A stretch of DNA of 64,000 bases from Caldalkalibacillus uzonensis (GTDB lineage Bacteria > Bacillota > Bacilli > Caldalkalibacillales > Caldalkalibacillaceae), in contig NZ_JAUSUQ010000013.1 of assembly GCF_030814135.1 (NCBI RefSeq), positions 45,643 through 109,642 on the forward strand, given 5' to 3'. Shown here in pieces: positions 52,831-53,340 of this stretch. Every line of letters begins with the position of its first letter. Within the stretch, counting starts at the first letter, position 1. The translations under genes were made by a program, and so were the position numbers. The notes under the pieces were generated by a model. It saw only the letters and a program-made list of their open reading frames with translations. It ran no database searches and was not told where the DNA came from.

Positions 52831-53340
52831 TTATTGGGATTCAAGCTTACGCAATACCTCAAATAACTCTTCGTTGTCAGGTTGCTGATCAATGGGGTGA
52901 ACATCGATAAAGCGGATAACCCCTTCTTTATCGATGATCAACAAGGCACGTTCACTGGCTCCATAAGCAGGTTGATCGGGATTGTCACGGAAGACACCAT
53001 ATTTCTTGGAAACTTCGCCATGTGGATAGAAATCAGCCAGCAAAGGATAGGTGATGCCTCCAATAGATTTGGCCCATGCTTTATGAGAGAAGACACTGTC
53101 AACACTTATACCCAAAACTTGGGTATCATACTCTTCAAAACGAGGAAGATCATCCTCGTATGAAGGCATTTGAGCACCTCAGACAGGGGTCCAATCTAAG
53201 GGGTAGAAAGCAATAAATACATTTTTCTTACCTTGGAAGTCGGACAAGGATACGGTCTCGTCCGTATGGGACTTCAGCGTGAAGTCAGGTGCTTTGTCGC
53301 CAACTTTTAAAGTTTTGGTCTCAGTGGCACCTTTTGGCAT
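52831..53340 (-). CDS. Peroxiredoxin, probable selenoprotein (in-frame TGA at residue 54)
   Basis: A 169-residue thioredoxin-fold peroxidase (AhpC/TSA family) if the TGA at 53179-53181 is read as selenocysteine. Starting at ATG 53340 (AGGAGG 7 nt upstream) the frame runs MPKGATETK, GDKAPDFTLKS, LSDFQGKKNVFIAFYPLDWTPV, then TGA at residue 54, then GAQMPSYEDDLPRFEEY, GISVDSVFSHKAWAKSIGG, DFYPHGEVSKKYGVFR and ERALLIIDKEGVIRF. In homologues the residue after TPV is the peroxidatic Cys. No other cysteine is encoded, so a read-through with another residue would be inactive. A SECIS-like hairpin follows. It would reduce peroxides in the cytosol. The alternative, a recent nonsense mutation, is not supported by any other lesion. 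Confidence 0.72.
53133..53165 (-). promoter_or_regulatory. Candidate SECIS element
   Basis: On the minus strand, starting 13 nt after the TGA, CTTCA pairs with TGAAG and, after a U/UU internal bulge, ACGAGGA pairs with TCCTCGT, closing the loop UGAUCU. The TGA-to-loop distance is 26 nt, within the range known for bacterial SECIS elements, and the loop has G in second place and a bulged U lies in the stem. It overlaps coding sequence, so base pairing by chance is not excluded. Confidence 0.6.

What the first reader, a model, noticed from the sequence alone, without database searches (positions are those of the whole stretch)
52831..53340. Probable selenoprotein peroxiredoxin with TGA at the catalytic cysteine and a SECIS-like hairpin
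Seen: an AhpC/TSA-type reading frame that is intact from a good ribosome site (53340) to the stop, with a single TGA (53179-53181) exactly where the family's peroxidatic Cys is (after DWTPV). No other Cys is encoded. From 13 nt downstream the RNA can form a 5+7-bp hairpin with a U bulge, loop 26 nt from the TGA (53133-53165), within the bacterial SECIS range. Established: selenocysteine can replace the catalytic Cys in some bacterial peroxiredoxins. Inference: Sec is inserted here, so the true protein is 169 residues and not the 112-residue fragment a standard gene finder reports. Selenoproteins are uncommon in Bacillaceae.
Basis: partly seen in the sequence, partly recalled or inferred. Interest (0 to 1): 0.93.

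Follow-up and report, generated by a model that had tools for sequence, protein, structure and literature searches.

The report
Selenoprotein peroxiredoxin with displaced recoding hairpin
This bacterial gene of the peroxide-destroying peroxiredoxin family carries a stop codon exactly where its relatives carry the catalytic cysteine; the stop is likely read as selenocysteine, and the RNA hairpin predicted to order this lies about 60 bases away, well outside the 16-37 bases described for most bacterial genes of this kind.

Summary
An AhpE-type peroxiredoxin (53340-52831, minus strand, 169 codons) has one in-frame TGA (53181-53179) at the catalytic Cys; no other Cys is encoded. The genome holds selA, selB, selD (itself with an in-frame TGA) and tRNA-Sec. 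Of 80 relatives fetched, 56 have TGA there, 24 Cys, none anything else. In 398 Bacilli genomes, 28 carry close orthologues (29 genes, all with TGA), and all 28 are among the 85 with selA. Sec insertion is close to certain, though no protein data exist.

A second hairpin (H2, 53126-53108), which it missed, is the better conserved part: paired in 97.5% of cells over 54 distinct TGA rows, compensatory changes in 4 of 8 pairs, invariant GU in the loop, no covariation in Cys homologues. H2 meets the published bacterial SECIS rules except spacing: 60 nt instead of 16-37. H1 meets them in 33 of 56 rows. Proposed: SelB reads H2, and H1 folds out of the way, leaving 27 nt. The enzyme is a known kind; the two-hairpin layout appears to be a new variant. 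59 of the 120 best database hits are truncated fragments.

The parts
52831..53340 (-). AhpE-type peroxiredoxin gene, 169 codons plus TAA, with in-frame TGA at codon 54
   Evidence: PF00578 E 1e-39; best solved relatives are AhpE by sequence and by predicted fold
53179..53181 (-). TGA codon 54 at the peroxidatic position (P47-x3-T51-x2-U54), predicted selenocysteine
   Evidence: TGA in 56 and Cys in 24 of 80 relatives
53348..53355 (-). ribosome-binding site AAAGGAGG
   Evidence: read from the sequence
   Evidence: 78.1% of cells paired, changes on both sides in 10 of 12 pairs; basal helix 89.6%; Cys homologues 30.1%
53108..53126 (-). hairpin H2: 8 bp with loop GUU (53118-53116), the probable SelB-binding SECIS, loop 60 nt after the UGA
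   Evidence: 97.5% of cells paired, covariation in 4 of 8 pairs; covariation in Cys rows at shuffle level; bSECIS rules met at 59-60 nt in 56 of 56 TGA rows
52778..52815 (-). intrinsic-terminator-like hairpin after the gene (17 pairs, then T run)
53466..53493 (-). sigma-70-like promoter match TTATCA-16-TATAAT (weak: 4 promoter matches in the region against 3.3 in shuffles)

Best explanation
The gene encodes an AhpE-type peroxiredoxin whose catalytic Cys codon is an in-frame UGA, which is likely read as selenocysteine by the SelA, SelB, SelD and tRNA-Sec encoded in the same genome, SelB being predicted to bind the downstream hairpin H2, whose loop lies 60 nt after the UGA. Shown: the frame, the TGA, the machinery genes, TGA or Cys at that codon in all 80 fetched relatives, and two base-paired hairpins that covary in the TGA genes and not in the Cys homologues. 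Inferred: Sec is inserted; H2 carries the SelB recognition loop; H1 (33 nt) stays folded at the mRNA entrance and takes itself out of the path, so that 60 minus 33 = 27 nt of path remain, which is inside the usual 16-37 nt. Inferred for the enzyme: Sec54 reduces hydroperoxides, is oxidised to a selenenic acid and, with no Cys in the protein, is re-reduced from outside, probably by bacillithiol and bacilliredoxin, for which BshA and a bacilliredoxin gene are present.
For: Machinery in the same genome: selB 379.9 bits over cut-off, selA 589.5, selD 420.5 with an in-frame TGA, tRNA-Sec 73.9 bits and ARAGORN tca. Codon 54: TGA 56, TGC 18, TGT 6 of 80. 28 of 398 Bacilli genomes have close orthologues, 29 of 29 genes with one TGA inside, all 28 among the 85 with selA (Fisher 2.9e-21, relatedness not corrected). 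Synonymous variability ratio is 0.529 in codons 55-79 against 0.857 elsewhere (0 of 20,000 permutations as low), and the 15 lowest of 163 seven-codon windows all lie in codons 53-79 (46 genes). H2: 97.5% paired, covariation score above every one of 500 shuffles and every slid version; 8 of 8 pairs in 47 of 56 rows against 1.95 expected under synonymous resampling; loop G and U invariant in 56 rows. Cys rows: 62.5% paired, no more than shuffles, no consensus fold. An H2-only model hits 29 places at E <= 2.7e-5 in 398 genomes, which are the 29 genes. AhpE fold. BshA and bacilliredoxin over cut-off.
Against: No protein, ribosome-profiling or selenium data. H1 also fits the bSECIS rules here, and its 5' arm is under synonymous constraint too (0.445, codons 55-62), so H1 may be the SelB site or both may count. 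The other two selenoprotein genes seen in this genome have hairpins at ordinary spacing. By a fixed rule H2 stands in 55 of 58 TGA rows; L086, L100 and L105 fail. L081 (Cys) has an H2-like hairpin; L183 (Cys) has 8 nominal pairs, three of them G-U, with a loop lacking G. Cys rows pair at H2 more than slid versions do (62.5% against 34-43%), so part of the pairing comes with the shared protein motif. The number of H2 pair types is at shuffle level (350 of 500). Only 1 independent Sec/Cys contrast lies on well-supported branches (5 on all), so common descent is not excluded as the cause of the tie between H2 and TGA. The Cys controls are more divergent than the TGA rows. H1 as a looped-out spacer is untested.
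Confidence: 0.72

Rival explanations
1. Sec is inserted, but H1 is the SECIS, and H2 is an accessory element (pause, folding aid or enhancer).
For: H1's apical loop lies 26 nt from the UGA with G in loop position 2, inside the published model; H1's 5' arm is under synonymous constraint; its basal helix covaries.
Against: A rule-fitting hairpin at 16-37 nt exists in 33 of 56 TGA rows (7 of 23 Cys rows), one at 59-60 nt in 56 of 56; RNAalifold on 56 different TGA rows keeps only H2; in three Acidobacteriota rows (L084, L086, L087) and two Chloroflexota rows (L096, L102) only 2-3 of 7 apical H1 pairs form while H2 has 7-8 of 8.
Confidence: 0.22
2. The TGA is a real stop: the gene is a pseudogene, or a 112-aa protein is made by restart at Met58, which has a GAGG in front of it.
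For: The table-11 ORF list gives the 112-aa ORF; 59 of the 120 best database proteins are such fragments beginning MPSY.
Against: The frame before the TGA is conserved in relatives and in 29 of 29 class genes; the fragment would lack the catalytic residue; the 28 genomes with the TGA gene all have selA; Met58 is also common in Cys homologues, where it is no start.
Confidence: 0.03
3. UGA is read as another amino acid (Cys or Trp) by a suppressor or by a changed code.
For: Three environmental database proteins carry Trp at this position, probably because a gene finder used code 4 (not checked at DNA level).
Against: tRNA-Sec with the tca anticodon and SelA/SelB/SelD are present; tRNA-Cys in the window has gca; the codon is TGA or Cys, never TGG, in 80 fetched loci.
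Confidence: 0.02

Closest known systems
Sec-containing peroxiredoxin (Prx, PF00578, TxxU), a listed bacterial selenoprotein family (PMC13188914, passages and section 5 read)
   Same: TxxU motif (T51-P-V-U54), Prx fold, Sec codon for the peroxidatic Cys
   Different: This gene is AhpE-type, with no Cys besides the predicted Sec; the passages of the review's table that I saw do not separate an AhpE type
Mycobacterium tuberculosis AhpE, a one-Cys peroxiredoxin
   Same: Best solved relative by sequence (E 1.6e-32) and first 12 fold matches (TM 0.84-0.86 by query)
   Different: AhpE has Cys; 37-38% identity; its reductants mycoredoxin/mycothiol (PMC4360819, passages) would here be replaced by bacilliredoxin/bacillithiol (inferred)
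Bacterial SECIS consensus model and E. coli fdhF SECIS
   Same: H2 has a stem and small apical loop with GU; the fdhF loop AGGTCT resembles AGGTCT and AGGTTC in H2 of relatives
   Different: The fdhF loop sequence starts 17 nt after the TGA, H2's loop is 60 nt away; a second conserved hairpin lies between
PrxU (NF040737)
   Same: Peroxiredoxin model hit by both TGA-bearing Prx genes of this genome; that PrxU includes Sec forms is recalled
   Different: This gene scores 84.8 bits against a cut-off of 270; it is not a member

Membership tests
Bacterial selenoprotein gene | in-frame UGA aligned to a redox Cys of homologues | tested here: met
   56 TGA and 24 Cys of 80 loci
Bacterial selenoprotein gene | selA, selB, selC, selD in the genome | tested here: met
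Bacterial selenoprotein gene | selenium in the protein | not testable with these tools
   needs 75Se labelling or mass spectrometry
Bacterial SECIS consensus model | apical loop of 3-9 nt, stem of at least 4 bp, G in the first two loop positions, MFE <= -7.5 | tested here: met
   a hairpin at H2 in 56 of 56 TGA rows, one at 16-37 nt in 33 of 56, by my own script for the published rules (rules from PMC13188914)
Bacterial SECIS consensus model | 16-37 nt from UGA to the loop | tested here: not met
   H2 at 59-60 nt; H1 at 26 nt does meet it in this gene
AhpE-type (one-Cys) peroxiredoxin | AhpC-TSA domain, P-x3-T-x2-C/U and the conserved Arg | tested here: met
   R131 invariant in 28 rows
AhpE-type (one-Cys) peroxiredoxin | nearest solved structures are AhpE; no resolving Cys | tested here: met
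   (model pLDDT 95.2)
PrxU equivalog (NF040737) | score over the curated cut-off of 270 bits | tested here: not met
   84.8 bits

The most novel reading that the evidence does not exclude
The gene carries a bridged bacterial SECIS: the SelB-binding hairpin sits 60 nt downstream of the UGA, and an intervening hairpin folds out 33 nt to bring it back to working distance. Spacing in bacterial Sec insertion would then be counted through folded RNA, not along the sequence, and search programs with a fixed 16-37 nt window assign the wrong hairpin or miss such genes.
Probability: 0.55. Interest if true: 0.74.

Novelty: new variant of a known kind. Interest (0 to 1): 0.63.

Why it matters
It turns a 112-aa fragment into a predicted 169-residue selenoenzyme found in 28 of 398 sampled Bacilli genomes and often filed as a fragment (59 of the 120 best database hits). 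It also offers a natural two-hairpin SECIS in which the rule for spacing in bacterial selenocysteine insertion can be tested directly by silent mutations. Reviews say that some bacterial SECIS elements fail the consensus model; this is a concrete, widely conserved case with covariation evidence.

Tried and rejected
Rfam: no SECIS-type family reached its threshold in the window, and only sub-threshold matches to unrelated families appear in 52700-53500. H2-only model in the own genome: only this gene, so no second user of H2 was found; over 398 genomes six further weak matches (E 0.005-0.044, 22-25 bits) in six other genomes were taken as chance and not examined. Viral contigs: 14 stretches matched a pattern, none a relative. 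Plasmids: 18 records with relatives under 60% identity; I fetched 8 of 18, all Cys. Literature: 10 searches. SECIS with 'second stem-loop' gave 0 papers; two-hairpin and atypical-SECIS terms gave 3 listings, none on such a layout by title or abstract start; AhpE with selenocysteine gave 7 listings, none about a Sec AhpE by title or abstract start; selenocysteine with Caldalkalibacillus gave one paper, on a formate dehydrogenase. I did not see the original bSECISearch paper, and the library lacks most subscription papers, so absence from print is not shown. Rows dropped: L100 (frame breaks in the H2 region) and L105 (no H2) from A1; L111 (truncated) from A2; L100, L103, L111 from the tree. With L100 and L105 kept, H2 by the fixed rule stands in 55 of 58 TGA rows. 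L034's neighbour genes were listed but not identified.

Full report
What is there. The minus-strand frame 53340-52831 encodes 169 residues with one in-frame TGA at codon 54 (53181-53179), no Cys codon, and an AAAGGAGG before the ATG. The product is an AhpC/TSA-domain protein (PF00578, 1e-39) whose closest solved relatives are M. tuberculosis AhpE structures, by sequence and by a confident predicted fold (pLDDT 95.2; first 12 Foldseek hits are AhpE). Codon 54 sits near the start of helix 52-63, in the P-x3-T-x2-C/U active-site motif. A table-11 ORF list shows only a 112-aa fragment. The nearest database entry, from a Caldalkalibacillus record, is that fragment (P0003, 111 aa); 59 of the 120 best database hits are such fragments beginning MPSY.

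Is the TGA selenocysteine? The own genome (3.88 Mb, 53 contigs) holds selB (379.9 bits), selA (589.5), selD (420.5, itself with an in-frame TGA, reading GGUGCK) and tRNA-Sec (73.9 bits; ARAGORN anticodon tca). Of 80 relatives kept out of 88 found in genome records, codon 54 is TGA in 56, TGC in 18, TGT in 6. In 398 Bacilli genomes, 28 have a match at E <= 1e-40, 29 genes, each with one TGA in the reported frame; in the 27 that I read as loci L121-L147 and in the two of the own genus it is at codon 54. selA is over cut-off in 85 of the 398, and all 28 are among them (Fisher 2.9e-21, without correction for relatedness). Together this leaves little room for a pseudogene or a plain stop; but no protein has been measured.

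Where is the SECIS? The 81 nt from the TGA fold into two main hairpins and a short one at the 5' end (-30.2 kcal/mol, z -5.28). H2 (53126-53108; AUACCCAA-GUU-UUGGGUAU) is new. Synonymous variability over 46 close TGA genes is lowest exactly here: all 15 lowest of 163 seven-codon windows lie in codons 53-79; mean ratio 0.529 in codons 55-79 against 0.857 elsewhere, 0 of 20,000 permutations as low; means are 0.445 in codons 55-62 and 0.348 in codons 72-77.

Covariation. On 56 of the 58 TGA rows (54 distinct), H2 is paired in 97.5% of cells, 4 of 8 pairs show changes on both sides, and no shuffle of 500 and no slid version reaches its covariation score; the number of pair types, however, is at shuffle level. 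Examples: CAA...TTG against CAG...CTG, ACC...GGT against GCC...GGC, and GTC...GAC in an Acidobacteriota row. The loop G and U are invariant in all 56. H1 as a whole is paired in 78.1% of cells with both-side changes in 10 of 12 pairs; its 5-bp base in 89.6% (at least 4 of 5 pairs in 51 of 58 rows). In 23 of 24 Cys homologues the same columns give 62.5% for H2 and 30.1% for H1, both at shuffle level, and RNAalifold finds no pair; the 62.5% is above the slid versions (34-43%), so the shared protein motif brings some pairing with it. Resampling synonymous codons, 8 of 8 H2 pairs are expected in 1.95 of 56 TGA rows and found in 47; in the Cys rows 0.14 expected and 0 of 23 found.

Which hairpin does SelB read? 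I applied the published bSECIS rules (PMC13188914, passages and section 5) in my own script. At the canonical 16-37 nt, 33 of 56 TGA rows and 7 of 23 Cys rows have a fitting hairpin; at 45-65 nt, 56 of 56 TGA rows do, all with the loop at 59-60 nt and containing GU (11 of 23 Cys rows have scattered ones). In five Acidobacteriota and Chloroflexota rows only 2-3 of 7 apical H1 pairs form while H2 has 7-8 of 8. H2's loop context AGGUCU/AGGUUCU in many rows resembles the AGGTCT of E. coli fdhF, which starts 17 nt after its TGA. A covariance model of H2 alone finds, in 398 Bacilli genomes, 29 places at E <= 2.7e-5, which are the 29 TGA genes, and six weak ones at 0.005-0.044; the model was built from genes of this same family, so this shows specificity more than discovery. 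In the own genome it finds only this gene.

Model. I infer that H2 is the SelB site and that H1, which begins 13 nt after the UGA, folds out 33 nt so that 27 nt of path remain, inside the usual range. This accounts for a conserved base and a variable tip in H1. It is not proven: H1 itself fits the rules in this gene, and H1 as SelB site or as a co-site remains open. In the same genome the second peroxiredoxin has its hairpin loop about 17-19 nt from the TGA, and selD has two adjacent hairpins with loops at 17 and 32 nt (single sequences, untested).

Results against. On a tree of 79 rows, 55 of 57 Sec rows have H2 by a fixed rule (L086 and L105 do not) and 1 of 22 Cys rows does (L081); only one independent Sec/Cys contrast lies on well-supported branches and five on all, so common descent is not excluded as the cause of the tie. 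Over all 58 TGA rows the rule holds in 55. Among 8 of 18 plasmid Cys homologues, L183 has 8 nominal pairs, three of them G-U, and a loop without G; L182 has 7.

Enzyme. With no Cys in the protein, the Sec-selenenic acid would be re-reduced from outside. AhpE of M. tuberculosis is reduced by mycoredoxin/mycothiol (PMC4360819, passages); this genome has BshA (543.7 bits) and one bacilliredoxin (203 bits), so bacillithiol/bacilliredoxin is my guess for the reductant. The gene seems to stand alone: a divergent ORF upstream (53522-54442, +), a terminator-like hairpin downstream.

Verdict. Selenoprotein: near certain by comparative evidence. New variant of a known kind because of the SECIS layout.

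Noticed in passing
L013 (G000:C9:48392-48838): A second peroxiredoxin of the same genome has TGA at the catalytic position (DFTFVU); PrxU/AhpC-like but below the NF040737 cut-off (159.2 of 270 bits). Its hairpin is at ordinary spacing.
   Followed up: partly
L028:1396-2526 (-): selD carries its own in-frame TGA (GGUGCK) followed by two adjacent hairpins, loops 17 and 32 nt after the TGA; possibly a second two-hairpin SECIS (single sequence only).
   Followed up: partly
P0004, P0009, P0060 (database proteins): Residue 54 is Trp in these environmental proteins, probably TGA translated with code 4 by a gene finder (DNA not seen).
   Followed up: no
P0003 and 58 more of the 120 best database hits: Truncated 109-111 aa records starting at Met58: systematic mis-annotation of this predicted selenoprotein.
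   Followed up: yes
L100:3160-3240: The Desulforamulus aquiferis copy has TGA, but the frame breaks in the H2 region (decayed copy or sequencing error).
   Followed up: no
L061 and L062: Tumebacillus avium carries two TGA copies of the gene in one chromosome (a like pair in G181).
   Followed up: no
L182-L187, L189: Cys homologues on plasmids of Alphaproteobacteria, haloarchaea and an Acidobacteriota strain sit next to a glutaredoxin or DsbA-family gene (all 7 annotated records of the 8 fetched), which hints at the redox partner of this family.
   Followed up: no
window 53177-53180: GAGG, overlapping the TGA and lying before Met58, looks like a ribosome site and may be why gene finders start there.
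   Followed up: no
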